Assembly: GCA_034401795.1 (NCBI GenBank)
Contig: CM067369.1
Coordinates: 91,254,579 to 91,318,578, forward strand
DNA: 64,000 nt
Reading direction: 5' to 3'
Source of the DNA: Chaetoderma sp. LZ-2023a
Taxonomy: Eukaryota > Mollusca > Caudofoveata > Chaetodermatida > Chaetodermatidae
Shown: positions 198-61,894 of the stretch, piece by piece
Numbering within the stretch: position 1 is the stretch's first letter
Layout of the letters: the number at the start of each line of letters is the position of its first letter
Position numbers and translations under genes: made by a program
The notes under the pieces: model-generated
Seen by the model: the letters and a program-made list of their open reading frames with translations, nothing else
Databases searched by the model: none
What the model was told of the DNA's origin: nothing

Positions 198-832
198 GTA
201 GGTGACTTTGTCAGTGGACAGGTGTATTACATCGTTTTCTATCATATCGCTCAATTTTCTTATCGTTTCCTGAATGTTGGAATGTGGCCATTAATTTGCA
301 GTCATACTTAACATTAGCGCATGCTTGCCTTTTAGTTGCACTAACTATATCAATTAGTTGCAATGCTTCCAATAGTGTTGTAATGCTTGTTTTATGGATC
401 ATGCAATTGCATTAGGTTATGGTTAAACATTAAGATTTTGCTCAAATAAAGCTGTAAAAAAATCTCTTTTTTCACACCAATTAGTTATAATCAGAATTTA
501 AGCAAAATTAAATTTATGTTAGTGATTAGGAGATCTACTTTTTATTATATTCAAATTTACCATTTTTCATTTACAATTTATGGCAACATAGTAAATATGT
601 AGAAATTTGATGACTGGAAGCTGTTGCTGGTTAAGGCAGTAATATCATCCAGTCAAATTAATTTCAAAAATGAACAATTTGGTGCTGGCTTCCATTGACA
701 CCAATGCATGTGTGTACGTGTCTTGACTTAAGCCGGCCCACACACCAAGAGTTGTACGATATATATCAATGAGATGTTGCAATTTTATGCATACCATATC
801 ATGATATTGTCTAGGGAAATGGCGTGGCCCTA
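198..832 (+). other. Intron, no gene
   Basis: This is AT-rich intron. The only structure I see is a degraded hairpin core at about 608-672, with the CCAGTCAAATTAATTTCAAA arm shared with families A and C. The small open frames here are not conserved in character. Confidence 0.6.
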
Positions 833-1158
833 TAATAGAGGGATCCAATCTGTCACTCAAGTATATTATGTCATGATCAGATATGTCATGTTAGATGATG
901 TCACAATCAGAATTTTCATGGAAAATCGCAGTCTGTCATCAAATTGGATGAATTGTATGTCTGATGAATGTGTAAATTAAATATTTTGAAACTAATTTGA
1001 CTGTGAGCCCCCAGTTAAATTGGTTTCAAAGTATTCAACAGCTCGCGTGTATACTTACCTTGAAATTTAGATTCTGGGAATTCAGGTTTCAATATTTCAA
1101 ATGGATTCCAGCATTCGTAAAAAGTGAACAGGATTAGCTAGAAATGGACCCCACTATT
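833..1158 (-). mobile_element. MITE family A copy
   Basis: A reverse-oriented copy. It begins GAGGGATCCAATCTGTCACT, carries a decayed core hairpin at 978-1040 (ATTTTGAAACTAATTTGACTG and its complement), and ends near the GGATTAGCTAGAAATGGA segment. The termini match the AATGGATGAATCCA-type ends of better copies. Confidence 0.7.
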
Positions 1159-1640
1159 ATCAGCCACTTTTGTTTACTATGCATGGTTAACAGCCTGTTT
1201 TGTTTCAGTTTGCATTGTGTTTTATTTGATGACATCACCATTTGCCAAAGTACTTCTGTTGCTTGCTCTTTTCCTGATTTGTCATGGTTTTCACCATTTC
1301 GCACACACAACAACTCTAAGCGCTTCCCACACTTATTCACCCACTATTCAACGCTATTGTGTTGTTTTGTTCGCTGGACCATGCGCCGTAAGTAGTTGAG
1401 CTAATAATTTTTTGTATGCTCTAGGTCAAGCGCTGATGCTAAACTTGGGGACAAATATCTCTAACCCTTTAATCCTCAAATGTGTTCAAGAAAATTTAAA
1501 TTTTAACGAAAATGTCTGTTTATTGACCAATCAATGATTATTTTTAATGGGTTAATACTGGAATGACTGCAATGATGTTGGGGTCATGGTCATGATTCAT
1601 ATTTGATTGCAAAGTCATAAAGTCGAGCTTTATGGTTGCA
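1159..1640 (+). other. Intron, no gene
   Basis: Low-GC intron. Open frames of 60-83 codons at 1144-1399 overlap each other in two frames and look like chance. Confidence 0.55.
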
Positions 1641-1649
1641 TTGCAGCCA

Positions 1650-2040
1650 CGTTTCTGGTTAAAATTTACCTCTCCAATGATGACTGGTGCAGTTATCGAG
1701 CCAGTGATTCGATTGATAAATTTTCAAAAATCATCTCTTCTCGGCCAGTAAACGGACATTTCTCAAGACCATTGCAGAAGACGTTTTGGCCGGCTTGTGT
1801 ATTATCCCTTTAACAGTTAGACAGCCAGTAATGGCTTTTAGAGTGGTCATGAGAAATGCACATTTGCGAGCGAAGAGAAAACTATTTTATAAAAATGTAA
1901 CACTGGAATTACTGGCTTGATAACCGAGCCACTTATGCCAGTGATAAATTTTCAAAGATCACGTTCTCATGGCCTGCAAATAGACATTTTCTATGAGAAA
2001 ATATAAATTTTCTTCAACAAATTTGAGAGTTATAGGGTTA
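1650..2040 (+). mobile_element. MITE family D, two adjacent copies
   Basis: Two palindromic units lie side by side, about 1650-1815 and 1815-2040. Each has the GACTGGYKCRR...AGCCAGTSATTC centre, the AAATTTTCAAAAATCAT arm and the GCAAATAGACATTTTCTATG arm. Both are diverged. Confidence 0.65.
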
Positions 2041-2124
2041 TGCTTGACGCTTTCTTTGTCAGCAAAGCGCATGTCTTAATGCTTTCTTGGACAGGGGCTA
2101 TGCAATGCCAATAAGACTCTATTA

Positions 2125-2360
2125 ACTCTTACCACTTTGCTGTCAAAATTTTAAATTTTCAACTCAAATGAAAAAGTAAACTGTTGTTCATTATTTAACA
2201 AATTTGGTGGAAGATTGTGCTGTCTACTCGGTTGAAGATGGTGCTGTGATAAACAGAAACATTGTCCGCCAAAATTGTTGAAAAATGTACACCAGTTTCT
2301 TTGCTATTAACACAGTAAAATATAGAATATTGACTTCAGAGTGGTAGGGGTTAATAGATT
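2125..2360 (+). mobile_element. MITE family E copy (TTAA-type)
   Basis: The termini are TTAACTCTTACCACTTTGCTG on the left and CAGAGTGGTAGGGGTTAA on the right, so the inverted ends sit inside TTAA. The inside shares GAAAAATGTACACCAGTTTC with the copy at 42518-42728. Confidence 0.7.
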
Positions 2361-2440
2361 TTGTTCCAAATCCGTTAATTGACAATCTGCTCACTTTATT
2401 CATATCTTCATCTTCACATGCACCTTCATATTAACCTACA

Positions 2441-2643
2441 GTACAGCTCATAAATAAGCTAAAATGTTTCCAAAACAGAAACACATTAGTTAGTAAGAAG
2501 TACTCTGTTGAATATTTTGAACCTAATTGGATTGGAAGACATTGCTACCTAAGGCAGAAGTGTCTTCCAATCCAATTAGGTTCAAAATATTCAACAGTTT
2601 GTTTTATTTTGTTTTGGAAACTAAGTTATATCTGAGGTGTACT
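2441..2643 (+). mobile_element. MITE family B copy
   Basis: The outer inverted ends are GTACAGCTCATAAATAAGCT and their complement near AAGTTATATCTGAGGTGTAC. Inside is a strong hairpin, 2509-2600, whose arms include TGTTGAATATTTTGAACC and a TTGGATTGGAAGACA segment. It is related to the copies at 18784-19003 and 44355-44580. Confidence 0.75.
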
Positions 2644-3654
2644 ATATATATACATTACTGGCCCTATTGTCAAAATCCTGTAGCATCTGGGATAGTCATG
2701 ATGGTGTACATTTCAGCTTACCTGGGTGATCTTATGCTCTGTTGATGTGTCCGTCACAAATAGTGGCCAACATTTCTTGATGGATTAAAAGCAGCAGATC
2801 CGTTTCCTTTTGCAATATCCTTTTGGGTTATAAAATTTAACTTGATACTTGTATAACGAAATTACTCGATGAATGGGACAGATCTCGGTCTATTCTGATA
2901 CAACTAATATTGCCAGATTTATTCCCCTTATTAGATTTTTAATGTATTAAAAGCTATAGTGAAAATGTATTTGTCACATTTCGACATTTGCGAGTGCTGA
3001 ATTAAGCATATGTTGAGTCAGTGTGGTAATATCCCCATGCCATCTCCATAGAGGCAGTTTCCCGGTGTCTTTCACCTTGTTGTTCAAATCTAGATGTTTT
3101 CAGAATGCATCTGCTGTCTCACTGACATGTTTTCCTGTTGAACTATTAAGAAATCCTGAAGAATGTTGAAATAAACTATATATCTGTCTATGCTGCGCAT
3201 GTTGTTAATATTACAGTAATACAGATTTATGGTCCTTTACAATAAGTATTACCGCCTATGGGATATGAATTTGCACAGAACTTGGTGGGTGCACATACTT
3301 TTGAAAATCAGTTTTCATAAGATAACGCTACGTAACTTTGCCCGTTTGATTCGAAACATTGTAAATCCATTGGGTGAGGTATGTAATGGTCATCTTGAAA
3401 ATTGGTTTCTGTACAGCAATTCAGTCTCGTCCAAGTGAGCATTATGTTCCCCCAGGCAATTTCTTAATATTAGTGACCTTGTATGCTATTGCCACTTTAA
3501 ACAGCAGTGGCTTTTAGAAAAACAAGCATGGAGGTGGCTTTCTCAGAGTTATTAAAATTTGACCGACTGATAAATCGACAGACAGATAACCTGAAAGCTA
3601 TACAGACAATCGCTAGGTGAGAGTTTTAGCTAAAATATGTCAAAAAAATAGATA
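2644..3654 (+). other. Intron, no gene
   Basis: I see no exon-like open frame with consensus splice sites, no clear inverted repeat and no similarity to the other repeats in the window. This is one of the few long unique-looking intron stretches. Confidence 0.5.
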
Positions 3655-3985
3655 CCATTAGGTGAATCTGATCTGTCAATCAAGTATATGATGTCATAAT
3701 TACCTACGTCACATGTAGGCTGGTGTTATAATATTAATAATTAACAGAGAATACGCTGTCATGAAGAGGGAATAGTCTGTCAAGTGTATGAATTGTATGT
3801 CTTTGATGGATTTACTATTTAATAAACATTCTGTTGAATATTTTGAAACTAAATTGACTGTGTATGGCAGCAACAGGGTGCGTGCTGTGGCTGCCTATGG
3901 CAGCAACAGTACCAAGTCAAATTAGTTTCAAAATATGTACCAGATTACCTGTATAGTTACTTTGAAATTAAGATTCTGGGTATTC
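3655..3985 (-). mobile_element. MITE family A copy
   Basis: Reverse-oriented. It holds the GTCTGTCAAGTGTATGAATTG and TTTAATAAACATTCTGTTGA segments, then a core hairpin whose loop carries a duplicated CTGCCTATGGCAGCAACAG piece (3866-3920). Confidence 0.75.
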
Positions 3986-4160: not shown

Positions 4161-4300
4161 CACTAGCCTTTAGAATTGGCCATTTACAAGGCCAAGAGGA
4201 CTTTAAAAAAACTTGCCACCTGACTGACTGACTGAGCCAGTCATTCTAGTTGTAAGCTTTAATAAATATTCATCTTTTGGCTTGCAGATAAGGATTGCTA
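4130..4300 (+). mobile_element. MITE family D, left half of a copy split by a transposon
   Basis: It begins TTAATGGTCAAGCTTGACAG, contains the GAGCCAGTCATTC centre and stops in the CTTGCAGATAAGG arm. The matching right half resumes at 13961 with TATGAGAAAATG and runs to about 14030. The two halves together give a normal family D unit. Confidence 0.75.
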
Positions 4301-4583
4301 TAGTAGGGCAGATATGTGAAAAAGATGTTCCATTCGGGCAGAAAGCATGAAATTTGGCATATATGTGGTTTAAGGTATCCTGATCATAATTAGATGTGGT
4401 GCCACGTGATTCTACCAAGGGAACCCATTCAAAATGACGGATTCAAAATGGCCGCCTTCCCAGCGGAAAATTTGCATTACTCAAGCTGTAGACGGAGTAG
4501 AGAGATGGGATTAATGTCAAATTAGGGGTTTCATGGGTCAATCGTTATAATTCTACTCACTAAAATACTCTAAATATGTAAAT
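4301..4583 (+). repeat. Left terminal inverted repeat of the nuclease transposon
   Basis: It runs from TAGTAGGGCAGATATG to CTAAAATACTCTAAATATG. By eye it matches the complement of 13664-13960 over nearly its whole length, with scattered substitutions and short indels. Confidence 0.85.
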
Positions 4584-4830
4584 ATCAATCCTTCCATAGC
4601 GACCACCTGTGTTTGATGTCAAAAGACGGTGGCTCTTTAAGATGTGTTATCTAAAAGATCCATCTCTTGAGAACAAAAGCAATATAGCATCTAGAAATAG
4701 TTTAAATTACTTGATTTCTTAATATCGAACCAAGTAATGGTCATTATAGATACATTTAATTATCATATTAGAGTATGCAAGGCTATACATGATGCTGTTG
4801 ATTGTTGAATCATGATTCACAGACATCACA
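4584..4830 (+). other. Subterminal spacer of the nuclease transposon
   Basis: AT-rich sequence between the left inverted repeat and the C-terminal end of the antisense gene. It would hold that gene's 3' untranslated region; no clear poly(A) signal was identified. Confidence 0.4.
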
Positions 4831-5603
4831 CGCACTGTGCACCGCATGAACACAACTGTGTACAAGGTATGTTGGATTTATAGCATTTGCATCTGCTAGT
4901 TCAATTACTTTTGCAAGCACATTTTACGAGTTCCCGACATGCCTTAGATGCGTCTGCAAGCAAACTCCATTGCGGGGACCAAGTGTCTCCATCTCTGACC
5001 CAACCCCAGTCAGCTGGCGATGGCGTTTTTGCATTTGCATGGAGTGATTGGCCCAAAAGATGACCTGCCTGGAACGCAGCACGTTTGGTGTATTGCAGCA
5101 GAGCTGCACTGGTCGGAGGAATGTTTTCTAGCTGCCTGTTGCCAAAAGCGAAAAGCCGTTTTCGTGCCTCATTAACCTTTGACAATGGTGATGTGCGTTT
5201 ATACAGTAGTGCGACAAACCTCTCCAGCGTTTCCATGTCATTGTCACACAGAGACGCCGGGGCATCAGAGTCTCCTAAATAGTGACTTGAATAGATCTGA
5301 AGTCCTCCAAACTTCCCATGCTGTCTTCTTGCCAATCCCACAAAATGCAGACGCAGTGTCACACCCAGAGAAAGCATGCATAAATAGCAATCCTTGTGAC
5401 GCTTCTGCACCCAAAACTGTTGCAATGCCATGAGCTGATACATAGCGGAAGGTCTTCCCATGGCCAAATGCGACCCAGAGATCACACCCATGAACAAAGT
5501 TTGCTGTCCGTATGGCTAGGACTACGACGTCTGTATCTGTAGCATGAATCATTATTGTTCGATAACCTTGGTGATATGCATGGAAGGCGTGGAGCAACAT
5601 TCT
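4830..5603 (-). pseudogene. XPG/FEN1-like nuclease, C-terminal half (degenerate)
   Basis: Reading leftwards, it starts at RMLLHAFHA (5603), then has TDTDVVVLA (5514-5540), like the acidic motif of XPG/FEN1 nucleases. SGCDT followed by GIGKKTAW (5316-5369) matches the GCDY...GIGxKxA helix-hairpin region of that family. Beyond a frameshift near 5285-5300 the gene continues in another frame with LERFVALLYKRTS, NIPPTSAALL and KRAAFQAGHL. It ends in KCACK; a TGA follows, and after it a Cys-rich tail SRCKCYKSNIPCTQLCSCGA is still readable to about 4830. The gene is therefore decayed. Similar stand-alone proteins are common in cnidarian and other invertebrate genomes, from memory. Confidence 0.75.
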
Positions 5604-5795
5604 TTCACTTCAAGAGTATACTTACCTCCCTAATACTCTTTGATATTGCTAAATATCGGCTTTCACTCAATAAACACTCAGATTAAAACAGTTAGGTGCC
5701 CCTACTGGGCAGGGAGTCAGAGGGCAGTCCGGCGGATGCCAGCCCCACCACCGCGCATGCGCAGACTAGCACTTCCTCTTTGCTAATTTATTGGC
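5604..5795 (+). repeat. DIRS A left inverted terminal repeat
   Basis: The TTCACTTCAAGAGTATAC end is followed by ACTTACCTCCCTAATACTC. It matches the complement of the right end through the CATGCGC and GCCAGCCCCACCACC segments. Confidence 0.85.
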
Positions 5796-6690
5796 AGAGG
5801 GTGTACATATGCTTTTGTGCTCAAAGCTTTTCCAAGCCTTTTCAAGTCTTTTTAAGCGATTATTAGAAGTCTAGAACACCTGTAGAGATGGCAGATAGAA
5901 TTACTTCGCCAGAGGAGGGCCCAGGATCTATCCATCAGGTGACTTCTATTATATTTTAGCGAGTTTTTTCCCGGTGTTATGTGTTTCCGGGACTCGCGTT
6001 TATCGTGATAAGCGCCTAGTATAGTTGTTTTATTTCAAAATGGTGCTATATAATACTAATCTCTCTTTGTGTTTATGTTCACAGGTATCTGTCTGGATAT
6101 GTATGGGACATCACATTAACAGAGGGTTTGTTTCTCTCCACTGAGACCATTTCCTACTAATACTGTTAGGTTATCTAACCAAAAAGTCTATGTCCAGTGA
6201 TTCGGAGGCCTCGTAAGAAGGTCTTCTCACTTTGCCCTCTTGATCCAATTCCTTTCCCCTTAAGGTGCAGAGAGTTAAGAGGTCATAGTCTTGGTGGAGT
6301 GTTCCAGTTCATCAGATTGGATGGTTTGTCTATACAAAGAATCAGGTATTCTAGTTAATGATATGAGGCACTTCTCTTATTTTTGAAAATAATTATGTAA
6401 ACTTTTGCCAGTATTATCATTGTTTATCTGATGTTTGTGTAGCCTGAATATCTATCCTTCCTAGTTAGATGTTCTGGATATGAATACAATTCGTCCTTAC
6501 ACCTGGATGTTTGTTTCGGATCGATTTAATTTCTGTCTTGAAATTATGATGTCATAATCAGCCTTGCACTTTATTAACAATTAAAGTTTTGCCCAACGCT
6601 GGCTTTCTCATATTGATAGGTGATCTTTATGATCATTTTCTTCCTCTCTTTTATTTTGGTTTTGAGTTTCTAACCGTAACTAAAATACTC
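5796..6690 (+). other. DIRS A leader
   Basis: A non-coding stretch between the left repeat and the first coding region. I see no recognisable domain. Confidence 0.5.
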
Positions 6691-6691
6691 A

Positions 6692-8248
6692 TTGTCCTCG
6701 TCTTCTGCCCTGTTTCAGAGACCTGTTTGTCCGTCCTGTGGTCGCTTCTTAAAGGAGAAGTTCATCCCTCACCTGTGCTTCCAATGTAGTCCTTGTGGAC
6801 CATTACTTAAATGTGATGTATGCAAGCAGTGGGGGTGGGGGGGCCGCGAACTAATGAATGAGTTCTTATCTTTACAGGCGAAGGATAAGGTCGGGGAGGA
6901 GGAGAGGAAGATGAAACGAGAGGTAGCAAGTAAAAAGGATAAGAGGAAGGCCTCGTCCTCAGTGGACATGGAGGCCTTCCGTAGTGAGATGTTGGGAGAG
7001 ATGAAGAGGACAATCAAGGATTTGGTTCCAGAGTTGCTCCGTAGCATGCTTCCTGGATCAAATCCTTTGTTGTCCTCTTCATCTGCTTCAGAGCAGATAA
7101 TCCCCGCCTCTGAATCTGGTTTCCTTAGGCCGCTACCAGTTTTCGGCGATTCAGAGGTGGCCCCATTAGAGGGGGTGTTCCACGACATTGGCAGCAGGCG
7201 TGCCATGCCGGTGGTCCGTGGACGGTTGTCGCTGGAACCTGCTGGCTGCTTATCAGCCCAGGGGTATCCGCATGCCGCAGGTGCCAGTACCTCCTATGGC
7301 ACCTTTCCTGGCCAGTCCAGGTTAGCTCTCTTTGCTGACCCGGAGTCTAATCTTTCTGGCCAGGAAGAAGAGGATTATCTGCTGGGTTCCCCTTCTGATG
7401 CCGTGGCCATGGATTTTGACATCTGTGCACCCCTCGCGGGGAATACAGGCGACATTGTCCACGGTTCTACTCATGCAGGAGTAGAATTCACGGCTCAGAA
7501 GGTGGCCCTGGTTGGATCTGACGGCCAGTTGTTCCGCATACCTCAGCTTGCCGAGAGTATTGCTGGTTCTGGCCGGGGCCGTGGTGTGGCGGTAAGCGCC
7601 CCACGCACTACCACGGCGCCTGCTCCTGGACAAGCCAGTCAGATTAACATGCCTGCTCTTTCGGGCCCGCATGCTTTCTCTGGCTTGCCAGGAGTGTCAG
7701 GCTATCCAACTTCAAGCTCAACTGCGTTTGCTCATGAGGAAGACGAAGGCCCTCGTCTTGTAGAGCTTTCGCAGGTAGCCATGGAGGAGGATTGGTCAGA
7801 CGCTTGTCAATGGCTGATAAGCGTCAGGCCAGACCTGCCCGTGGAACAGTCGGCTAGCCAGCAAGACCACCGGCCGTGGTTAGCTGGTAAGTCGACTGTT
7901 AGCGCCATGCCATCTCTGCCGCTAGCAGAGCATATCGTTGATATGTTCTCGGCGGCGGAGACGTCCATCAAGGCGAATGGACATCTCGCGAAGGCCCCTC
8001 GCGAGGTTGCAAGGCGCTGCCGCATCGTACCTGTGGGGTATCAGAGGTACGGTGTGGTACCTAAGCCCAGCGTTGATGACCGCGCGGCTTTAGGTGAAGA
8101 TACGCGGCCAGGCTCCCGTTCTGACATGGGAGCGCTGTGTTCGAACGCGCTGCGTTCGGCCACAATACCGCGTTGCGTGATGCGGAGGAGAGTGGGAGAG
8201 CGTCTATTGCGGCGCTTTCTCACGTCTCCCAGCTGTTGCAAGGGGTAG
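6692..8248 (+). CDS. DIRS A gag-like region
   Basis: A long open stretch at the position of the DIRS gag-like gene. The N-terminal part has closely spaced cysteine pairs (CPSCG, CFQC, CDVCKQWGW), probably zinc-binding. A Lys/Glu-rich helical stretch follows, then a long Ser/Pro/Gly-rich region. Homology to other gag proteins is not visible, so the call rests on position and composition. A second open stretch at 8137-8778 ends in a basic Arg/Gly/Gln-rich tail that could bind nucleic acid. Confidence 0.6.
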   Translation: MSSSSALFQRPVCPSCGRFLKEKFIPHLCFQCSPCGPLLKCDVCKQWGWGGRELMNEFLSLQAKDKVGEEERKMKREVASKKDKRKASSSVDMEAFRSEMLGEMKRTIKDLVPELLRSMLPGSNPLLSSSSASEQIIPASESGFLRPLPVFGDSEVAPLEGVFHDIGSRRAMPVVRGRLSLEPAGCLSAQGYPHAAGASTSYGTFPGQSRLALFADPESNLSGQEEEDYLLGSPSDAVAMDFDICAPLAGNTGDIVHGSTHAGVEFTAQKVALVGSDGQLFRIPQLAESIAGSGRGRGVAVSAPRTTTAPAPGQASQINMPALSGPHAFSGLPGVSGYPTSSSTAFAHEEDEGPRLVELSQVAMEEDWSDACQWLISVRPDLPVEQSASQQDHRPWLAGKSTVSAMPSLPLAEHIVDMFSAAETSIKANGHLAKAPREVARRCRIVPVGYQRYGVVPKPSVDDRAALGEDTRPGSRSDMGALCSNALRSATIPRCVMRRRVGERLLRRFLTSPSCCKG

Positions 8249-8722
8249 TGACAGCACCCGCTTCATGCCAGCCGAGCCCGATCACGGTCCAGAGAGCCAT
8301 CCAGGATGGTATCAACCTGGCTCTGGATTGTATGACTCGGGCTGTGACCAGAAGTGTCCGGGCGAGGCGCACGTTTGCGTTGGATAACCTGTGCCCGTCC
8401 CAGGACCTGTACAATAGGCTTCTGCGTACGCCTATGGCAGGTCCTGGTCTCTTTGGAGGTGAGGGATGTAAGCACCTCCAGGAGACGGTCACTCTGGTCA
8501 ACAACCAGAGGGTGCTGCACGAACAGTTTGAGGTGCTCCGTAGGGAGCGCGTTCGCGCTGCACCCCCTGCGTACCATCCCCTGCAGGCTCGAGGTGGAGG
8601 TGGCCATGTCAGAGGCCAGCCACCAGCGCAGCGTCGGCCTTGGCCGCATGCGATTCGGCCAGCAGTGAGGGGAGCGCAGGCTCCTCAAGCGCAGCCAGCC
8701 AGGCAGCCACCCGCGCACCAAG

Positions 8723-10740
8723 GTGCGCGCGGTGCTGGTCGTGGCGCGCGAGGATTTGGTTGTGGTAATCGTGCCTGATGGGCCGGTTACCACGGTGAGA
8801 ACCACTCCGGTGTTTCTGGCAAAGGAGACAGTGCCACTCTTGCACTCCTTATGTCCACCTCTCTCCCTAGGTGGTCCAGTGGGGGGCCGGTTGGCCCGCC
8901 ACAAGCAAGAGTGGGAACGGTTGACTCAGGACCGTTTAGTCTTGCCATGGCTTTCAGTCGGGTATCATCCCGATTGGATGACAGGCCCACCATCGCGACT
9001 GTCTCTGGTGCCGATCTGGACTCAAATTCCGAGAGATCCAGATCAAAGGTTGTGTATAGAGGAGGAAATAAACTCCCTCATACAAAAAGGAGCAATTCAG
9101 CTGGCACAAAAGTGTCCGGGCTTCTATTCAACCGTGTTCTTAGTGACAAAAAGCACCGGAGGGTGGAGACCAATTCTCAACCTCAAGCCTTTGAACAAGT
9201 TCATAGAGACACCCAGTTTCAAGATGGAGACTGTGAAGTCGGTGTTGGCGGGGTTGGAGAGGGGAATGTGGACAGCTTCAATAGATTTGAAGGATGCTTA
9301 TTTCCACATCCCTATAGCGAGGAGTTTCCGTCGCTTCCTGAGATTTGCATTCCAGGGCAGACAGTGGGAATTCAGGGTGTTACCCTTCGGAATTTCCACG
9401 GATCCTATGGTTTTCACCAGAGTGGTTCTTGCGATTACAGCATACCTCCGCAGGAGAAGCATAGCAGTCCACACGTACATAGATGACTGGCTGTTAAAAG
9501 CACACAACTGGGAAAGTTTATCAGCGAATCTGGAGATAGTTTTGAAAACTCTCACAGACTTAGGCTGGATAATCAATTTCCAAAAATCAGAGCTGACTCC
9601 ATCCCAGAAGTTTGTTTACCTGGGAATGTTCTTCGATCTAGAGACAGGATATGTTTATCCTACTCAGGAGAGGGATCAGATACTCATCTCAGTAATACAG
9701 TCAGTGTGCAACAGTCGTCATGTCCTGGCACGGGTTTACTTGAGAATGCTGGGGTTGATGGTTTCTCTGGAACCAGTCATTCCTCAGGCGGCCTTACGCA
9801 GGCGGCCGATCCAGTTATTTCTCATGACGCAATGGACCCAGAGTACAGGTTCACTGGACTCAAATGTGTCAGTGTTGGAGCCTCTAATTCACCACCTTCA
9901 ATGGTGGTTGAAGACAGAGAATCTCTGGGTGGGGGTTATGCTAACCCCTCCTCACCCTCAAGTAACTGTGTATACAGATGCCTCGATGGAGGGGTGGGGA
10001 GCTTGCCTGGAAGAATCCATGATATCAGGCCTTTGGAATCTGGAACAGTCAAAGGAACATATCAATCTACTGGAGTTAAGAGCAGTAGTCCTGGGCCTGG
10101 AACATTTCTTACAGAAAGTTCAGGGCAAGAGTGTTCTTATTCGATCAGACAACTCAACAGTAGTGACTTACATAAACCACCAGGGCGGAACGAAGTCGCC
10201 CAGTCTGTATGATGACATGGAAACTGCTTTGTTGGTGCCTGGATCACAGGATTACCTTGAAAGCAGTTCATATTCCGGGAAGGTTAAATCTGCTAGCAGA
10301 CTCATTGAGCCGAAGGATGAGTGTTTTACAGACGGAATGGCAACTAAATCAATGTGTGGCGGATCGTCTGTTCGACCATTGGGGGAAACCCAACATCGAT
10401 TTATTCGCAATGAAGAAGAATGCGAAGATGACGACCTACGTCTCTCCGGTTCCAGATCCAAGCACTTTCGCAACAGATGCGTTAGCTATCAGCTGGGTGG
10501 GAATGTATGCATATGCATTCCCTCCAGCAATCCTGATTCCAAAAATTCTTCAGAAAATCAGAGAGGAGGAGTGCCAAGTGCTTCTGATCGCCCCAAATTG
10601 GCCAAGCCGATCATGGTATACGGATCTGCTGGACCTTCTGGTCTGCAATCTGGTTCCTCTGCCTCTGATGGACGACATTATCTTCCAGGGCAAGGCCCTT
10701 CACAACAATCCGTCAATGTTCAGATTGACTGCGTGGATGT
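8723..10740 (+). CDS. DIRS A reverse transcriptase - RNase H - methylase region
   Basis: Reverse-transcriptase motifs appear in order: GGWRPILNLKPLNKFI, IDLKDAYFHIPI, LPFGIS and the active-site block VHTYIDDWLLKA. RNase H follows with VYTDAS, NLLELRAV, IRSDNSTVV and HIPGRLNLLADSLSRR. After that comes the block WGKPNIDLFA...DALAISW...YAYAFPP, which in DIRS elements is the DAM-like methylase region. Coding parts lie in overlapping frames, an arrangement known for the order. The region is well preserved. Confidence 0.85.
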
Positions 10741-10769
10741 TGTCAAGGAATCTAGAATTAAGGACGGCT

Positions 10770-11745
10770 TTTCTGAGCAAGCAGCAATGTTTATGGCTAA
10801 AACCAGGAGGGGGTCAACCTCCAGAGCATATAATTATAAAATCAACAGATTTGCAGAGTGGTGCTCAAAAAGATCTATTGATCCAATGGATTCATCTATT
10901 CAGGTAGTAGCTGATTTCCTCTGTCACCTGTATGATGCCTATAGCCTCAAGCCTAACTCTATTGCTGGTTATAAATCAGCTTTAATGACAGTTATTCCTT
11001 GCTTGGCTAATAGGGGAAGTAATAAGTAAGTACATTAAATGTATTAATTAAAGGCATGGTCAATTTAAGACCAAGGAATCCCCCTGTGATTCCATCTTGG
11101 AGTTTATCTCTAGTGCTTCAGGTACTAGGTGATAAGCCTTTTGAACCACTTAGTTCCATTTCTATGAAAATGTTGACTCTTAAAACTGTATTTTTAATGG
11201 CTGCGGCCTCGGCTAGGCATAGGAGTGAAATTCATGCCTTATCAGCCGAGGAAGACCGTTTCGTGGTTACAGGGGAAGGCCTTAAGCTTCTACCTAGGAT
11301 TAATTTCTTGGCTAAGAATCAGTCTTTGAAATATCCAGGTCAACCTATTTTTTTGCCAACTTTAACTAGATATGGTCCTAATTCTAAAGCGTGGTGTCCA
11401 GTCCGAGCACTGATCTGGTACAAACAAAGTACTCATGAGTGGCGGACGGACCAGTCAGCGTTATGGTTGTCATATATTGAACCCCATGGCAGGGCATCTA
11501 AGGACACCATTTCCAGGTGGATTGTAGAATGTATTCAATGTTGTCATAAATCCACCACAGGTAAACAAGTTGACATGGCCAAGGCTCACAGTGTCCGTGG
11601 CGTAGTGACTTCCACTGCCCTATTTAATGGGGTCCCTGTGGATGACATTATGTCAGTTGCTCAGTGGCACTGTGTGTCAAGTTTTACAGACCATTATCTC
11701 TGTGACACCTCAAATCCTCTCGCCTTATCGATTTTGAACAAATAA
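10770..11745 (+). CDS. DIRS A tyrosine recombinase region
   Basis: It begins with a helical core-binding segment (SRAYNYKINRFAEWC). The catalytic part has SARHRSEIHAL (first Arg), HSVRG (the His-x-x-Arg box) and WHCVSSFTDHYL (Trp/His and the nucleophile Tyr). This enzyme inserts the circular DNA copy and explains the lack of a target duplication. Confidence 0.85.
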
Positions 11746-12281
11746 TCAGGTGTACTTTTTTGATGAGGCTTCCTCATTACTTGTATATATCACAATTAAT
11801 TAATGGGATCAACCACTTTTTGGGACTACATCAGCCTTCACCGCTGGGAAGATGATGTCAGCAGCCAAGTTCAACAAGGTCAGTCTTGTTTATGTGTTGT
11901 TCATTGTTAATTGTATTGGCACGTGACCCTTTGTTATTAAAATGGTGATGGTATGTGTTTTTATGTGGTTCATTATTGAGAGTATTCGAAAATGGAGCTT
12001 TTTTGTCTCTTGTCCTATAGTACATGGCACTTGTACGTAGAGAGCGTATGGGACATTGAAGTCATTCGAGTCTTCCTCCCAGGAAGGGGGGGGGGGGGGA
12101 AGCGCATATGACATTCGGTCATCTCTCATCCATCGGTTTGGGTTAGCCGATGTTTATCAAATCCTGACTGTGTTTTCACACAGTTTCAGAAGTTTAAGTG
12201 CCTTAAACGCAGAAAAGCGCATAGGGAAGAGCTGGTCTTTTGACCTCGCCTCCCTCCCGCCGAATTCCCTGTCAAATTCTG
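11746..12281 (+). other. DIRS A tail before the internal complementary region
   Basis: Non-coding, with a G-run near 12087-12099. No domain was recognised. Confidence 0.5.
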
Positions 12282-12388
12282 GCAATATCAAAGAGTATTA
12301 GGGAGGTAAGTATACTCTTCAAGTGAAATAAACGGAAATCATGGATTTCTTTTTTCACGAGAGAGTTGATACTTACCTCCCTAATATG
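12282..12388 (+). repeat. DIRS A internal complementary region
   Basis: The first part (GCAATATCAAAGAGTATTAG and on) is complementary to the left end at 5604-5650. The second part (TTTTTTCACGAGAGAGTTGA and on) is complementary to the right end at 12601-12660. In order, it is the complement of right end joined to left end, as in the DIRS-1 circle model. Confidence 0.85.
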
Positions 12389-12448
12389 GACCCGGCCTCT
12401 CCATCCCACAGAGGCTCTGTCTTCAGGCTCTTGTTAGTTGCATGTGTC

Positions 12449-12666
12449 AGCCAATAAATTAGTCAGAGGAAGTGCTAGTCTGCGCATGCGCGGTGGTGGG
12501 GCTGGCATCCGCTGGACTGCCCTCTGACTCCCTGCCCGTTAGGGGCACCTAACTGCTTTAATCTGAGTGTTTATTGAGTGAAAGCCGATATTTAGCACTA
12601 TCAAAGAGTATTAGAGAGGTAAGTATCAACTCTCTCGTGAAAAAAGAAATCCGTGATTTCATTTAT
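12449..12666 (+). repeat. DIRS A right inverted terminal repeat
   Basis: It mirrors the left repeat through GGTGGTGGGGCTGGCATCC and GAGTGTTTATTGAGTGAAAG and ends TTTCATTTAT. The host sequence ACCATCTGC follows. Confidence 0.85.
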
Positions 12667-13553
12667 ACCATCTGCTTCATCTTGCATATATGGCGCGAGT
12701 TGTGAGACGTCATGCTCTGGCCTCATCAGCACGTTTTCCTCACATGGTGTGACGAGTACATGTATCTTTCCTTCTGGTAGCTCGAATGACTCCAATGTAT
12801 GTGCGAGAAAGGTGAACAGGCCTGTTTTGTTTGCATCAACTTCACCATGAGCTTCACCATGTCCCCGTAATTCTCTAGCGTGTGTCTTCAAGCTTCCCGC
12901 CTTATACACGTCTCATACAACATCCAATCTTTTAACCGTCTGTAGTTGTCTAGCAATGTGTGGGAGGAAGACGTGCTCTGCAAAATCTCCAAGTGTGTTC
13001 ACAACCACGTTTGATTTCTTGGGATCTAGATTATGCATCATAGCTGCGCCGTCAATGATCTTCACTTCAACCTCTGGACAATCAGCTGCACGAGATACTA
13101 ATGCTTCCAAACATCCCATCAGATCTGATTTGCTGCCTTGACGCATTGCGTTGCTCTCAGCAAGTGATGGGGGCCATGGATGATTCTCATGCTCAAAGAA
13201 TGAATCACGGTCTCCGTCTCTGGATTGGCAGGAAATGTACAGTCTAGAGAATAACTGTACATCTCTCTTCATTGCAACAAGCTTCTTGTTGGTTCTGGTA
13301 CTCTTCCTCTGTTTTGATTTGAACAAAGCCAAATTGTTCTTTTGGATTGGGTCATATACCGATTTTGATGATACAGATATTCGATCTGCAACGAATGCGT
13401 GGTACTGTCTGATGCCTAGTTCTTCTGCTGTTCGGATCGCATTCACTACAGACTCGGACATAATGACTTTGTAGACCAATTGTTTTGAGTAGCGAAAACT
13501 TGTTTCTAAAATGTTCCACCCGGAACATGTGTGTACAAACGTTTAGCAATAAT
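12667..13553 (-). pseudogene. XPG/FEN1-like nuclease, N-terminal half (degenerate)
   Basis: Read leftwards from about 13553, the open frame gives CSGWNILETSFRYSKQLVYK, then a Lys/Arg-rich part (KSKQRKSTRTNKK). KIIDGAAMMHNL (about 13028-13061) follows, a likely N-terminal catalytic Asp motif of the PIN/XPG fold. A TGA at 12910-12912 precedes DVYKAGSLKTHARE, where related proteins, from memory, read WDVY. The half ends at QDEADG (12667-12684), whose acidic residues fit the internal XPG motif, and the DIRS junction follows at once. The true N-terminus is not visible; a stop lies just upstream. Confidence 0.7.
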
Positions 13554-13559
13554 ACTACT

Positions 13560-13591
13560 AATTTACAAATGTTACAACAACAACGACGACC

Positions 13592-13623
<32 letters not shown>

Positions 13624-13660
13624 CATAATAATAATAATAATAATAATAATATATTTTTTC
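13560..13660 (+). repeat. Microsatellites (CAA)n and (AAT)n
   Basis: A run of about a dozen ACA/CAA units is followed by about ten AAT units, between the nuclease pseudogene and the right inverted repeat. Confidence 0.95.
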
Positions 13661-13663
13661 AGC

Positions 13664-13960
13664 ATGTTTATCTATTTAGAGTATTGTAATGGGTAAAATC
13701 ATAACCAGCGACCCAAGAAATCCTTAATTTGACATCAATTCCAGCCCTCTACTCCGTCTAGAACTTGAATAATGCAGATTTTCCGCTGGGAAGGCAGCCA
13801 TTTTGAATCCGCCATTTTGAATGGGTTCCCTTGGTAGAATCACGTGGCACCGCATCTAATTATGTTCAGCATACCTTAAACCACCTATATGCCAAATTTC
13901 ATGTTTTCTGCCAGAATGGAACATCTTACCTCAAATTTGTTACATAACCACCCCACTACT
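13664..13960 (+). repeat. Right terminal inverted repeat of the nuclease transposon
   Basis: The complement of 4301-4583. It ends ACCACCCCACTA, with CTA then TGAGAAAATG of the split family D copy. Confidence 0.85.
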
Positions 13961-14030
13961 ATGAGAAAATGTGTATATTCTTGATCATATTTTGACCACT
14001 AATTTGTTAGGATGTCTTTACTCTGCACAA
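13961..14030 (+). mobile_element. MITE family D, right half of the split copy
   Basis: TATGAGAAAATG, then TTCTTGATCATATTTTGACC, is the end arm normally following GCAAATGGACATTTTC in family D. Confidence 0.7.
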
Positions 14031-14048: not shown

Positions 14049-14430
14049 GAATGGATGAATCCACCTGTAGCTATTTCCCGCACATTTCTATCTAAGCTCT
14101 GCCAACACATTTCCCGTGTTGGTGTCGATCGCAACCTGAATTCCCAGAAGCCTAATACTGAAGTAACTATATAGGTAAGTTGGTGAATATTTTTTAATGA
14201 ATTTGACTGGGTGCTGTTGCTGCCTATAGCTGCAACAGCGCCCGGTCAAATTAGTTTCAAAATATTCAACAGAATGTTGATTAAATAGTAAATCCAAATC
14301 CAGCACAGACATAAAATTTGTTCACTTGATGGACTTTTCAGCTTCATGACGGAGAAATGTATGTCAACTATGATGGTAACATCAACCTGTATGTGATGTA
14401 ATTGATTATGACAGATTGGATTCATCCATT
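14049..14430 (+). mobile_element. MITE family A copy, complete
   Basis: The ends AATGGATGAATCCA and TGGATTCATCCATT form terminal inverted repeats. The core hairpin (14185-14277) has the GACTGGGTGCTGTTGCTGCC arm. This is one of the best copies for defining the family, about 380 bp. Confidence 0.8.
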
Positions 14431-14939: not shown

Positions 14940-15322
14940 ATCAATTTCTAACTATGCCTTGCCCATTCCTAGCTAAGCTCCATCCACGCTTTGGCCGTGT
15001 TGGGATCGTTTGAACCCTGAACTCCCTGAAATCTCAATTTCGAGAAAATTATACAGGTAAGCTGTTGAATATTTTGAAACTAATTTGACTTGGTGGTGAT
15101 GTTGCTGCCAAGGGCAGTATTAGCACCCAGTCAAATTAGTTTCAAAATATTCAATAGAATGGTTATTAAGTAATAAAGACATACAATTTGCACACTTAAA
15201 AAGTTCATGATGAATCTAGCTATGCCATTCATTACGCATTTTGATTGTACGGTCAGCCTACATGTGCCTAAATTCATTATGACGTCACATACTCAAGTGA
15301 CAGATCAGATTCATCCATTGGT
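14940..15322 (+). mobile_element. MITE family A copy
   Basis: It starts GGGGAATCAATTTCTAACTA and ends CAGATTCATCCATT. The core hairpin is at 15062-15152. It includes CAG|GTAAGC at 15054-15062 and a TGACGTCA site at 15280-15287. Confidence 0.8.
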
Positions 15323-20139: not shown

Positions 20140-20375
20140 AAAGGGTTAGTCATTTAATGATCAAGCCAGGCATAAATGTCTTCTGCAGTGGTCTTATGGA
20201 ACGATTATTTGCATACCAAGAAAAGACTTGAACATTTAACACTTGAATGACTGGATCGAAAAAACGTGGCAATCATCCAAGTGGTAAATTTTCAAAAATA
20301 GTATCCTCTTAGCCTGCAAATTGACAGTCAGTCAGCAATAATTGTGATTTTCTTGACCAATCTTATCCAATAGAA
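20140..20375 (+). mobile_element. MITE family D copy
   Basis: It starts TTAATGATCAAGCCAGGC and ends near TTGACCAATCTTATCCAATAG, about 45 bp before the acceptor of the 11.6-kb exon. Confidence 0.7.
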
Positions 20376-20419
20376 AAATCAACTGCGATATAAGGTTTGC
20401 TTTGTGTTCTTCATTTCAG

Positions 20420-23400
20420 TTTGAGTTGGACGAGATACCATTGCTGCGAACATTCCGCGCGGAGCTCAATAAACGTTCGTCAATGATCATCGACAAAGAC
20501 ATGGCTGACTTCTTACAGCAAATCGCAGCTGGTGAACAGGAGATGATTAATTTACAGATGCCACCCAAGCGTACACAGTACACAACAGAACTACGGCTCG
20601 CTGGTCTCAGCTCACCAGGACAGTCAACGATGTCTTCACCGGGCAGCCATTCCACAACGCTAATCGTGAATACCCATAGGCCAGCCTTGACTGTCGAATT
20701 TCAAGCGGTTCAAGATCAAGGTCATATTTCATCTACCATGAAAGAACCAACGAGCGCTACTCTTGAACTCTCAACAGATAAGCGAGATAGAACGAAAGCC
20801 ATAGAAACCAAAATAGTCAAGGCTCCACAAAGTATACAAACTGTTGTTCATGTACATCAGGATAAGATTTCGCCAAAGAGTGGCATCCTTTTTGCTGAGG
20901 CCATTTTGGATAAAAAATCTGCCACAAAGTTAACGCTACCAGAGGCAATCGATATGGGTGTTGTTGATTTAGATTCAGAATGTATTGTTGATACTAAAAC
21001 TGGATTCAGAATAGCTTTACCAGAAGCTCAAAGACAGGGTATGATTAACCGCGAAACAGTTGAAGCCCTTCATCAGCTGTCTGGTATCACTGATCCAAAA
21101 ACAGGAAATGAGTGTACACTGTTACAAGCTCTGCAGAAAAAACTGTACAATCCTAAAGAGAACACAATACATAATCCATTAACAAATGAAGTATTAAGTA
21201 TTAGTGAGGCACAACAGAGACACTTAGTGAGCCAGTCATTAGCGTCAGACTTAACAGATATGACTTTAACACTTTCAAATGTGACACAATCACAAGCACT
21301 TTTTGGTGAAGATATGAATTTCTCCGTTGCTGAAACAACGCTGACTTTGAGTGAAGCTATTGAGAAAGGCTTGTATGATCGTAAAACAGGAAAATTCAGT
21401 GATCCTGTTTCAGGCGAAGCTTTGAGTCTTATCGACAGTATTGAAAAAAGTTACATCAGACCAAACTTAAAAGAGGTAGTTGATCCTGTGAGCGGACGAA
21501 AAATAACAGTTACAGAGGCTGTTTCGAAAGGAATAATTGACCCACAAATGGGAACATTCTTGGATAAAAATACTGGGAAGAAAATTGGCCTTGATGAAGC
21601 ATATGAGAAGAATAGACTTAGTCGGCCTGTAACGATAACTGAGGCTTTGTCCGAAGGTTTAATTAACAAACAGAATCAGTTCTTGGATGAAAGTTCTGGC
21701 AAACAGGTGACATTGTTAGAAGCAGTGCGTCTTGGTTTCTTGGATACTGATACGAAGTGCATCGTAGATCCAGAAAATAATGGTATACTTTCTTTTGAAG
21801 AAGCAAGACATAAAGGCATCATCAACGCAGCGGGCAGCTTTGTGTCACCTCTTAATAATGAAGAAATGTCGATCCATGAAGCAATGCAGAGAGGCATGGT
21901 GAAACTGGTTAAAGAAGAGGTTCTGTTCGCAAGAAGAGGAATATTAGACTTGAAGAGAGGTGAATGGGTCAGCTTAGCACAAGCACTTAAACATGGAATG
22001 ATCACTAAAATGGGACATTTTGTTGATAGTCGGACGGGGCGAACAATGCCATTGCATGATGCAGCGGAAAAGGGATTCATAGATTATGAACTATTGAATT
22101 TGTTAGAAGGGAATGTGAGTTTGTATGATACAAAGGGGAAGAAAGTTTCCTTACTAGCGGCTGTCCTCTCAGGAAAAATAAATGCTGAAAGTGGTGAGAT
22201 AATGACTCAATCTGGCACCAAGTACACAATCCAGGAAGCTGTTACAGAGAATGTTCTGGGAATAGAGGAAGCTGGTACTATCTTGAGCATAATTTGCCCA
22301 CTTATTACCACAACAACTGTCACAACAAAGATGGAAACAACATTGCATACTGCTCCACGCCAACCGATAAGCGTTTCAGAGGCTATTCGCCAAGGATACC
22401 TTATTGAGAATACTGGGATGTTCACTGATCCGGTCACGGGTGTTACAATGCCTGTAGATGAAGCCATAAAACGAGGCTCACTCAAACTAACATCTGATTG
22501 GCCTGATATCCTTGGAGAAGATGAAACAGATAGTGACATGTATACAGCCACAGGTGCAAAGGTTGAAGCAAGCTTTGTGACTAGAATAGGCAATACATTT
22601 ACGTTGACTCAAACAACAATTTCTAAGCCATCAAAATTACAAACAATTATAGCAGAAAAGAAACATTTAACAATAAGATCGGTTTTGGACCCATTAACTG
22701 GTAAGCTCATAACTGTGAAAGAGGCAGAGGAAAGGGGGTATCTTGATCACTTCAAGGGCTTATTTTACAATCCTCAGACAGGTGAACGTATGCCTATAAA
22801 TAAAGCAATAGAGCATGGTTTCATTGTGGCTGAAAGGTCAAGCTCTTCAGATATATTAGATGGTGATGAATCAACAAAAGAGACAAAAACATATACAATC
22901 ACGGGAGCCATCCATCCAAGAACCGGAAAACGAATTGGTGTTGGTGAGGCTATTCAGCTTGGAATATTGGACCAAAATAATGGACAGTATGTTGGCGTAG
23001 ATAATGATGGAACAGAATACTTTATTCCGATTAGTGAGGCGATTGCAAGAGGCCTTGTAATCGCGGAAGATGTTAGTGATGATAACTGGTCATATTCCGA
23101 TGATTCGATAATACGTGAAACACGAACTTACGATCTGAAACATGTTATCAATCCAATTACACATCAGTGGATTGATATTAAAGAAGCAATCAGAGTGGGA
23201 ATAATTGATGAAGGAAAGGGACTGTATATTAACCCACAAACAGGAGAATCAATGTTTGTTACAGATGCTATTGGAAAAGGCTTGATAGAAGCCGAACTGA
23301 TTTCCATTAGTCAGACATCAGATAACAGTAGTAGAATCATCACAACAAAACAAACAACTTTGTCAGTTACATCAGTAATTGATCCACGAACAGGACAAAC

Positions 23401-26400
23401 AATATCAATCCAGAAAGCCATTCAGGATGGCATTCTGGATCAGATAAAGGGAATCTATACGGATATTGTAACTGAGAAAACCATGAGTATTAACGAAGCT
23501 ATTGAAAGAAAACTTGTGTTTACAGAAAGTTTGGAAACCTCAGGATCCAGACCTTCATCCATTGCCAGTATCCACATTACTGATGATGCAGAACCAGTAG
23601 AAGCAACATTAGTTGAAGAAATCACTGAAGAAAAGATGACGTTTAGTATAACGGGTGTTATTGATCCTCGGACAATGGAAATGGTTTCATATGATGATGC
23701 GATAGAGTATGGAATAATAGATTTGAAAAAGGGAACCTATGTTAACAGAAGTACAGGTGAACGTTTACCCATTCAGGTAGCATTGTCCAAGGGCCTTATT
23801 CATGGAGAAATGACATCAAAAACTGAAGAGGAAGAAATCATGAAAAGTACATTTACAGCAGGTGCTTCATCATTAATGCTTCAAAAGAACTTCACATCCA
23901 TCAAGGATTCTCTTACTGGAAAGGAAATTTCTATTTCTGATGCCATTAAGGATGGTCTTATCAATCCACAAACCGGAACAGTTTATGATAGCAAGCGACG
24001 GCAATCAATTTCAATTAATGAAGCTTTATCACAAGGCTTACTTCAAGAGTCCAAATTTACTGATGCAGCTAGAATAGCGGAGATTGAAGCAGATGAGTTA
24101 GCCCATAAGCCACACCTCAAAGTTACGGATAGTGTTGTTTCATCATCTGTAGATATCACGGTAGAGAGAGCTGAAGAAAGCCGACGAGGTGGTGGGCATG
24201 ACCGATCCAGAAGTAGATCTCCCGCGGTTGAAACACTTAACTACAATACCAGTGTTGAGATGAATAGCACTCTTGATAGTTCATTTTCATCCAGAAGTGG
24301 GCAGAGAAGTATGAGTCCTCTTGGAAAATCAGGAGTCCAGAAAGCTGGAAGTGGAACACAGTTTACAGAGTCAGCCCCCAGAAAGACACCAGAAGTCGCG
24401 CCAAAACCGACAAAAGTATCTGCTGATAAGCCCTCTCGACCGGTACATGCAGGGATTGAATATTTTGAATCCAATCAACTGATTTCAGATCAAGCTAAAA
24501 TGTCCTATGAGTCGGCTGTTCGCCTTGGGTTGTTGGATGTAGACTCAGGAACATTTCGCAATTCTTCCACAGGTGAAGTTATGACATTGAAGGAAGCTCT
24601 AGATAAGAACTTGATTGATGTTAATCTTGCAGCATTCCGAGACATCAATTCCGGTAAGACATTCTCATTGAAGGAAAGCATTAATAGGAATATTATTGAC
24701 CCATCAACAGGTCACATGGATGAATCTGTATTAGCTATGCAAAATGTTACAGTTGAGCCAATATTCTTTCAAGCCAGTGATATAACTGCAATAAATCTTC
24801 AGGATGCTATTCAGGGTCATATATACAATCCAGACAATGGCCGCTTTAGAGATCCTGCTTCCGGAAAGGAGATGACCCTCCGAGAGGCAGTAAATCGTGG
24901 AATGATATCTGGGATATCAACCACGATTGATCATCCCAGGACAGGGGAAAAGATAACTCTTGCTAATGCAATGCGACAAGGAATTGTTAATGGTGACACA
25001 GGAATTGTAGCTCATCAGGGTTCAGGAAAAGGTGTGCCTCTGCATCAGTGGCTTGCAGATGGTAAAATTAAATCCACATTTGATTCCACAGCTGGTACGA
25101 TTTATGATCCAGTTACAAAAACCAATGTTTTGATCGATAAAGCGATTATGAGTGGACAGATAAAATCAGAAGATGCTAAGATTTTTGATACTGACAAAGA
25201 TGAAATGGTGTCTCTCGATGTTGCTTTTCGCCGCGGTATTTTGGATCGCAGAACTGGTCAAATTATAGATAAGTCAACAGGAACTAAAATGACAGCAAAA
25301 GATGCAGCTAAACTTGGACTATTAGCGATAGTTGGAGCGCCTGTTTTAGCGGGTAAAATGCTCTATGATGCTGTTAAAGGGACAGGTGGCTCGGCTACAA
25401 ATGCTTCATTATCACAGAGCTTTATCTCGGACACAACTGATACAGCACCTTCAGGACTAAGACGGACACAGTTGCCTGATAAGTTTATCAATGGTCATGA
25501 TGAACCGGCTACATCAAGTACACCAATTAAGCAGCTTCAACGCCACTCAGAAGAGCATCAGCGCCTCCATTCTCAACAGCCCTTGACTACTATCATATAT
25601 GCTAAGCCTGGTGACCGCATCCAGGCATCCAAGCCATTGGATGACTCCATCTCTGAGGAACTTCAGGTGTGGATGACGGATGGTACTGATGTGAGAGAGC
25701 GACTTCCATCTACATCACCGAAGCTGCAGTTCTCAAACAGGGTAAGTGCTGGAATTCAGGATATCGTCACTCCTAGATCACAACGTGCACTAGTTTATCC
25801 TTCTACTGACTCTGCTAATATTGCTGGTGTTGATGACATCACAACTGGTGGTGGTTCACATAGTCATCCAAGATCGCCTACTCTCCCTCCTTCTAGTTCT
25901 CCTAGAGATAGTAGTTCTACTAGTACCACTTCTCGGGTGTCTTATAATACCGGAGAGGTGGCCTTGCACCCACAAAGACACGCCGATATAACAGTGGTGG
26001 ATAGGCTAACACAAATTAGAATGCAAAAGCCATTAGCAAAACATGATAGAGGTGAAGGTGATGAGCAAACCACGATAAATGTTATTTCATCTTCACAGCA
26101 TCCAAGAGGTATATCTTCACAGCATCCGAGAGGTGTGGTAGATGAAGATGAAGTTGTATCCATGAGAAACATTCGCATTGATTGGACAAAAGGAGAAGTT
26201 GTAGACTGTGATAATGGTCAGACAATGCCTATATCTGAGGCGGTTCAAAAAGGACTAATAGACTCCGATACAGTTGAAAAACTTGCAGATTCTGCTGCAC
26301 AAGAAATTCAACTAAACAATCCCAAGATTGACTGGAAGACGGGTGAGATTTGGGATAGCACAACTGGTGAAAAGATGAGTGTTTTGAATGCCTTTTACAA

Positions 26401-32038: not shown

Positions 32039-32410
32039 GTGAGTAGTAGATATAACTATATTAAACCATATTTAACCTATATGATATGTAGGTTTTCATC
32101 TCTGCTAGATACACATTTGCTCTAACTTGTCCTGGACTAAATTCTACATCTTATGTAGAATGTAGGCTGTATCATATTTGTTCTAGGAACTCCAAATGCA
32201 GTATAATAAATATTTGAGGCCATTAAGAAAAATTCTAAATATAATTGTATAAGCTTCTTAATTATTTAGGACTATTTAGTATCTTTGCTTATTAAAATTG
32301 CTGGTGGTAGGGGTTTAGCTGAAGTTGGGTACAGTAGGTACATTGCTTTGTAAAGTTTCTAAATGTGATGGTTGCATGAGGTAAATTTATTAATATTATG
32401 GTATTGGCAG
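32039..32410 (+). other. Intron start; possible read-through tail of the giant exon
   Basis: The frame stays open for 29 codons past the donor and stops at about 32123. AATAAA lies at 32205-32210. No cDNA evidence is available here. Confidence 0.35.
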
Positions 32411-42728: not shown

Positions 42729-42900
42729 TGTCACAGAATGGATCACAAAATATTGTATGCTCAATTCATTAGTATCAGCTGCAGCAGTAGTACTAGTATT
42801 ATCATCAACAGTAGCAGTATCGTTAGTATTCATAGTAACATTATCAGAAGGAGTAATATAAACATATGAATTCTAAAATGTAGCTGAATTGTATTTGCAG

Positions 42901-44323: not shown

Positions 44324-44354
44324 GTAAGTACTCCTAGTTATTAGGATGAAAATC

Positions 44355-58177: not shown

Positions 58178-58247
58178 ATTTTGCTCTCGCATGCTAGTCG
58201 TGTTTTTTGTAGCTCTTAAAATTTGCGATTATTTACGGAATTAATGG

Positions 58248-61880: not shown

Positions 61881-61894
61881 GCAGTGTGCAATTA

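What the first reader, a model, noticed from the sequence alone, without database searches (positions are those of the whole stretch)
4301..13960. Transposon that seems to carry only an XPG/FEN1-type nuclease
The antisense gene has IIDG, DEAD, TDTDVVVL and GCDT...GIGKKTAW in the order of XPG/FEN1 catalytic motifs, plus a Cys-rich tail. It is framed by ~290-bp inverted repeats and a candidate 3-bp CTA duplication. No transposase or helicase is visible in the ~2.6 kb left after removing the DIRS. XPG domains are reported in Academ transposons, but as part of a larger protein. This may be a cut-down Academ relative or a little-described nuclease-only element family.
Basis: partly seen in the sequence, partly recalled or inferred. 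Interest (0 to 1): 0.72.

Follow-up and report, generated by a model that had tools for sequence, protein, structure and literature searches.

The report
Deleted transposon copy keeping nuclease gene
This is one worn-out copy of an abundant DNA transposon that lost its transposase part by internal deletion and kept a decaying nuclease-like remnant, so it looks like ordinary transposon debris and not a new nuclease-only element.

Summary
A TIR-bounded element lies at 4301-13958 with a 3-bp CTA duplication. It holds an antisense gene with FEN1/XPG-like motifs, split by a DIRS (about 5604-12666). The 2.44-Gb genome holds many copies (searches reached their scoring caps). Longer copies explain the case: one runs 6999 bp between the same TIRs, and open frames of 706 and 961 aa join a transposase-like region to the nuclease. 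The window copy is an internal-deletion derivative. Its junction was not found elsewhere among 40 scored places; the 12 most similar places have other junctions. Some deletion junctions do recur, in about two to five copies each. Of 29 copies chosen by TIR alone, 12 keep the nuclease block and lack most of the transposase-like region; 12 others have the nuclease cut or removed. Nuclease-keeping deletion copies decay neutrally (omega 0.98; 23 stops seen, 25.4 expected). Three-bp duplications flank 16 of 18 copies read, which fits published AcademX (3-4 bp, nuclease) and not AcademH (9-10 bp, helicase). The XPG label rests on motifs: profile and PDB-sequence searches found no XPG match and both structure models failed. 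I found no good evidence for a nuclease-only family. Interest is low.

The parts
4298..4300 (.). left copy of the 3-bp target-site duplication (CTA)
   Evidence: 3-bp duplications in 16 of 18 copies read
4301..4600 (+). left terminal inverted repeat (on the side of the nuclease C-terminus)
4901..5603 (-). C-terminal part of the nuclease-like gene (ATDTDVVVL, GCDT..GIGKKTA) and Cys-rich tail; open frames 5265-5609 and 4901-5515 are out of frame with each other (frameshift near 5265)
5604..12666 (+). DIRS-like retrotransposon inserted into the gene between DEADG and RMLLH (boundaries plus or minus 1-2 bases)
   Evidence: RVT_1 over cut-off and RNase H just below it; inverted repeats; junctions
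12667..13490 (-). N-terminal part of the nuclease-like gene (IIDG, VV-stop-DVY, DEAD); premature stop at 12910-12912 and a short in-frame loss after ELRGHGEA relative to other copies
13469..13473 (.). internal-deletion junction (r1739/r4862 of the long copy): about 3.1 kb with the Cys-rich and transposase-like regions is missing here
   Evidence: not repeated among 40 scored places
13660..13958 (-). right terminal inverted repeat (upstream side of the gene)
13959..13961 (.). right copy of the 3-bp target-site duplication (CTA)

Best explanation
It is a non-autonomous internal-deletion copy of an AcademX-type cut-and-paste DNA transposon. The long copy read here is 6999 bp, about 5.8 kb without what I take as a foreign insert. 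It encodes a Cys-rich region, a transposase-like region and a FEN1/XPG-like nuclease region with a Cys-rich tail, the last two in one frame. The window copy lost about 3.1 kb that holds the first two and kept the TIRs, so it could be moved in trans by full copies. It inserted with a 3-bp duplication, decayed, and was hit by a DIRS. Shown: TIRs, 3-bp duplications, long copies, joined open frames, many different deletions, neutral decay. Inferred: mobilisation in trans, deletion during gap repair, and the role of the nuclease. My guess for that role is cutting or trimming the strand or flap that the transposase active site does not handle.
For: Copies: 40 scored TIR hits (the window included) printed at 97-100% identity; 150 matches for each nuclease query, at the cap. 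TIRs around the gene. Long copy of 6999 bp; 706-aa frame in L032 that spans the end of the transposase-like region and the whole nuclease; 961-aa frame in L098 that joins the transposase-like region to the first third of the nuclease, stops follow; transposase-like region in 126 matches, 121 scored. Three-bp duplications in 16 of 18 copies. Diverse junctions. Neutral decay of 30 deletion copies: N 360, S 133, omega 0.98; stops 23 against 25.4 expected. AcademX 3-4 bp, AcademH 9-10 bp (PMC10045372, passages). Academ mean length 5565 bp in a bivalve library (PMC10294476, passages).
Against: No library profile recognises the nuclease or the transposase-like region, so AcademX is not shown by homology to a named Academ protein. 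Kojima 2020, which defines AcademX, is not held. L057 and L047 lack a 3-bp direct duplication. No empty allele was found, only paralogous repeats that read through the site. Some nuclease-keeping deletion forms recur.
Confidence: 0.91

Rival explanations
1. A nuclease-only transposon family that spreads as a unit and keeps the nuclease because it helps its own movement, with transposase from elsewhere.
For: Many TIR-bounded copies keep the nuclease block and lack most of the transposase-like region: 12 of 29 TIR-chosen copies. Some junctions recur: 1875->4590 in L007, L041, L053; 1729->4517 in L011, L036; 1790->4904 in three places, with two more within a few bases (L119-L123), and 1714->about 4825-4836 in four places of which two are the same stretch on two contigs. 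One such copy (L044) has a 596-aa frame open to near the C-terminus.
Against: Omega 0.98 and stops at the neutral number in 30 such copies; 29 of these 30 have a stop or frame-breaking gap in the nuclease region and the other (L041) lacks a fifth of it. Right-hand breakpoints do not spare the nuclease start: 9 of 25 upstream of it, 8.6 expected. The 1790->4904 group has lost the MSESVV start codon (r4872). The window junction is not repeated among 40 scored places.
Confidence: 0.05
2. A different DNA transposon superfamily with 3-bp duplications that happens to carry a FEN1/PIN-like nuclease, not Academ.
For: No profile hit ties the long protein to any named superfamily. Zator also makes 3-bp duplications (PMC10045372, passages).
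Against: The set of 3-bp duplication, a nuclease with the transposase and about 5.8 kb length is what the papers read give for AcademX/Academ.
Confidence: 0.06
3. The nuclease-like region is not a XPG/FEN1 homologue and the motifs are chance.
For: No XPG or other convincing Pfam hit in 18 of 18 aligned copies. Local alignment of L058 to host FEN1 is not significant over the core (p 0.067); hhalign gives probability 1% and E 0.054. My five-motif regex matched neither host FEN1 nor this protein, and my three-motif regex matched host FEN1 but not this protein.
Confidence: 0.08

Closest known systems
AcademX lineage of the Academ DNA transposon superfamily (Kojima 2020, not held; described in passages of PMC10045372)
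   Same: 3-bp target duplication; a nuclease encoded together with a transposase-like region; long element with TIRs
   Different: The window copy lacks the transposase-like region through an internal deletion; membership by protein homology could not be tested
AcademH lineage
   Same: Academ superfamily, accessory enzyme with the transposase
   Different: 9-10 bp duplications and a helicase (PMC10045372, passages); here 3 bp and no helicase hit
KolobokE, KolobokP, KolobokD (DDE transposons with other accessory nucleases; PMC9587614, passages)
   Same: A DDE transposon that carries an accessory nuclease
   Different: Other nuclease folds and another superfamily
Host FEN1 (L099, 380 aa)
   Same: GCD[YT]...GIG.K.A motif and acidic motifs in the same order
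   Different: FEN1 hits XPG_N and XPG_I in Pfam; the transposon protein does not

Membership tests
AcademX | 3- or 4-bp target-site duplication | tested here: met
   3 bp in 16 of 18 distinct copies with both ends read; L057 and L047 fail; L046 was not assessable and L060 duplicates L045
AcademX | terminal inverted repeats bounding the element | tested here: met
   TAGTRGGGC...GCCCCACTA ends in most copies read; 264-nt arms at 89% in the window
AcademX | XPG-type nuclease encoded (type recalled; the paper read says nuclease) | tested here: inconclusive
   motifs in order, but no profile or PDB-sequence hit and both structure models failed
AcademX | Academ DDE transposase in the same element | tested here: inconclusive
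   long copies carry a large region in frame with the nuclease; no library or reference here could name it; absent from the window copy
AcademX | autonomous length near the Academ mean (5565 bp in a bivalve library) | tested here: met
   6999-bp copy minus an inferred foreign insert of about 1.2 kb; mean from PMC10294476
AcademH | 9-10 bp target-site duplication | tested here: not met
   3 bp
AcademH | helicase encoded | tested here: not met
   no helicase hit in the long-copy open frames scanned; the same scans also failed to name the transposase-like region
   window junction not repeated among 40 scored places; the 12 closest have other junctions. Other junctions do recur in about two to five copies
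   omega 0.98 on copy-specific changes in 30 copies

The most novel reading that the evidence does not exclude
Deletion copies that keep the nuclease block are a functional non-autonomous class: the free nuclease, in some copies with a start codon at MSESVV near the junction, once helped such copies spread in step with transposase from full copies, and small same-junction groups are its trace. The present neutral decay would be only the aftermath of insertion.
Probability: 0.05. Interest if true: 0.45.

Novelty: new member of a known kind. Interest (0 to 1): 0.15.

Why it matters
It settles the case as ordinary: an XPG-only transposon need not be invoked, because longer relatives with the same ends sit in the same genome. 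What is left of use is a large AcademX-like family whose nuclease region is too diverged for Pfam, and in which the role of the nuclease in transposition could be tested.

Tried and rejected
Structure prediction: a single-sequence model of L032 (pLDDT 36) and a model on 18 aligned copies (pLDDT 33) were useless, so no fold search was made. Relatives of the nuclease in IMG/VR and GTDB: none confirmed; a FEN1 query by the same tool also found none, so that tool's silence says little. PF18701 was a wrong guess of mine. PF00867 over the genome gave 10 hits, four over the cut-off; I read only L099 (FEN1), take the others as host FEN1-type genes, and saw none at a listed place of this family when comparing by eye. 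The L040 junction also differs. Sparing of the nuclease start by breakpoints was rejected. Paper searches for 'Academ' with 'XPG' and for Academ internal deletions found none; this says only that the held library has none. The check raised the odds of the nuclease-only rival and of the novel case from 0.04 to 0.05 (recurring junctions) and those of 'not XPG' from 0.07 to 0.08 (three-motif regex), and lowered the main reading from 0.92 to 0.91.

Full report
What is there. The element runs from 4301 to 13958, bounded by CTA at 4298-4300 and 13959-13961. Its ends are inverted repeats (264-nt arms, 89% complementary). On the minus strand it carries a broken gene: open frames 12913-13542, 12601-12912, 5265-5609 and 4901-5515. 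A DIRS-like element with a reverse transcriptase domain, and an RNase H match just below its cut-off, sits inside the gene at about 5604-12666. It falls between residues DEADG and RMLLH, as seen against an uninterrupted copy. Besides the DIRS the gene has a stop at 12910-12912, a short in-frame loss, and a frameshift near 5265.

Copies elsewhere. The window lies in a 2.44-Gb assembly, which I take as an animal's from the spectraplakin-like gene beside the element. The left TIR (300 bases) gave 40 scored places, the window included, printed at 97-100% identity, out of 1657 first-look candidates. The N-terminal nuclease piece (209 aa) and the C-terminal piece (114 aa) each gave 150 matches, the window included, at the scoring cap. 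In most of the fetched loci the same TIRs lie beside the gene; L021 and L025 have the TIR without the nuclease.

Target site. I read both ends of 18 distinct copies: the window, L032 and 14 others, and L047 and L056. Sixteen have a 3-bp direct duplication right outside TAGTRGGGC...GCCCCACTA; in L042 and L044 one or two of the outermost bases of the element differ. L057 and L047 fail; the flanks of L047 are inverted copies of each other. L046 could not be assessed and L060 duplicates L045. Joined window flanks found no empty allele. Five relatives of the old repeat into which the element went, at about 71-75% identity near the join, read through it.

Longer copies. One copy (L079, L032 and L061 in genomic order) is 6999 bp between the same ends. 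Aligned to it, the short copies whose right end was read lack r333-1546 or nearly all of it, which I take as a foreign insert, and the window copy also lacks about r1740-4861. The missing 3.1 kb holds a Cys-rich open frame (L061:1249-1917) and a large region just upstream of the nuclease. In L032 a 706-aa frame spans the end of that region and the whole nuclease. In L098 a 961-aa frame joins that region to the first third of the nuclease; the rest follows in the same frame after stops. The upstream region has 126 matches in the genome (121 scored) and the Cys-rich region 150. I call the upstream region transposase-like from its place in the element and from recall of Academ-type proteins; no library named it.

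Deletions. Of 29 copies chosen by TIR similarity alone (L002-L030; 18 of them extended by 1.3 kb), 12 lack most of the transposase-like region and keep the nuclease block, three of them with small gaps inside it. Five continue from the nuclease into the transposase-like region as far as read. In the other 12 the nuclease block is cut or, in L021 and L025, removed while part of the upstream region stays. These counts are by eye from the alignment tables; L014 and L030 are borderline. Junctions differ widely. Those seen to recur are 1875->4590 (L007, L041, L053), 1729->4517 (L011, L036), 1790->4904 (three places, one of them L029, and two more within a few bases), and 1714->4825-4836 (four places, two of which are one stretch on two contigs). 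The window junction, 1739->4862, was not seen again: of 40 scored places 12 others matched nearly the whole query at 82-89%, and all 12 have other junctions; the rest match one side only or both sides apart. Of 25 right-hand breakpoints 9 lie upstream of the nuclease start codon, against 8.6 expected for a uniform spread.

Selection. In the 536-codon nuclease region of 54 copies (L060 left out as a duplicate), changes seen in one copy only give, for 30 copies that keep the nuclease but lack at least r2671-3917, N 360, S 133 and 23 stops. Observed N/S is 2.71 against 2.76 expected (omega 0.98), with 25.4 stops expected. For 14 copies that keep the nuclease and extend upstream of r3918, omega is 0.80 (N 156, S 63; 8 stops, 11.3 expected). 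Shared changes give 0.69 and 0.67 in the two groups. That is what one expects if only the full-length source lineage is under constraint; no error bars were computed. Of the 30, 29 carry a stop or a frame-breaking gap, and L041 lacks a fifth of the region. L044 is nearly open.

Comparison with the literature. PMC10045372 (passages read) says that AcademX makes 3-4 bp duplications and AcademH 9-10 bp, and relates this to the nuclease and helicase they encode. PMC10294476 (passages) gives a mean Academ length of 5565 bp and a bivalve-specific amplification. Kojima 2020 is not held.

Mechanism. Full copies supply the transposase-nuclease protein; TIR-bearing deletion copies ride on it; internal deletions probably arise when the gap left by excision is repaired incompletely (inference, from recall of other DNA transposons). 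The role of the nuclease is not shown here. My guess is that it trims or cuts the strand that the transposase active site leaves.

Noticed in passing
window 20357-32122 and 42877-44337, + strand: A 3922-codon open frame full of plectin repeats and, downstream, a spectrin repeat: a spectraplakin-like host gene lies beside the transposons.
   Followed up: partly
window 58245-62475, + strand: A second DIRS-like element with frames similar to those at 8669-11745; the reverse-transcriptase-like match at 61124-61879 is below its cut-off.
   Followed up: no
window 3807-3944, 14165-14296, 15047-15177: Copies of a palindromic repeat around the insertion; relatives elsewhere in the genome read through the empty site.
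   Followed up: partly
L061, r333-1546 of the long copy: An apparent foreign insert of about 1.2 kb in the long copy; stretches at 64-81% identity lie in the flanks of L002, L026 and L048, so it looks like another repeat.
   Followed up: no
L047, flanks of 609-3308: The flanks of this copy are inverted copies of each other for at least 14 bases, with no direct duplication.
   Followed up: no
L045 and L060; contigs C847/C1968, C689/C1116: Pairs of hits with the same flanks or scores on two places suggest duplicated or haplotype stretches in the assembly, which inflate copy counts.
   Followed up: no
window 36001-36500: A run of 500 unknown bases (N).
   Followed up: no
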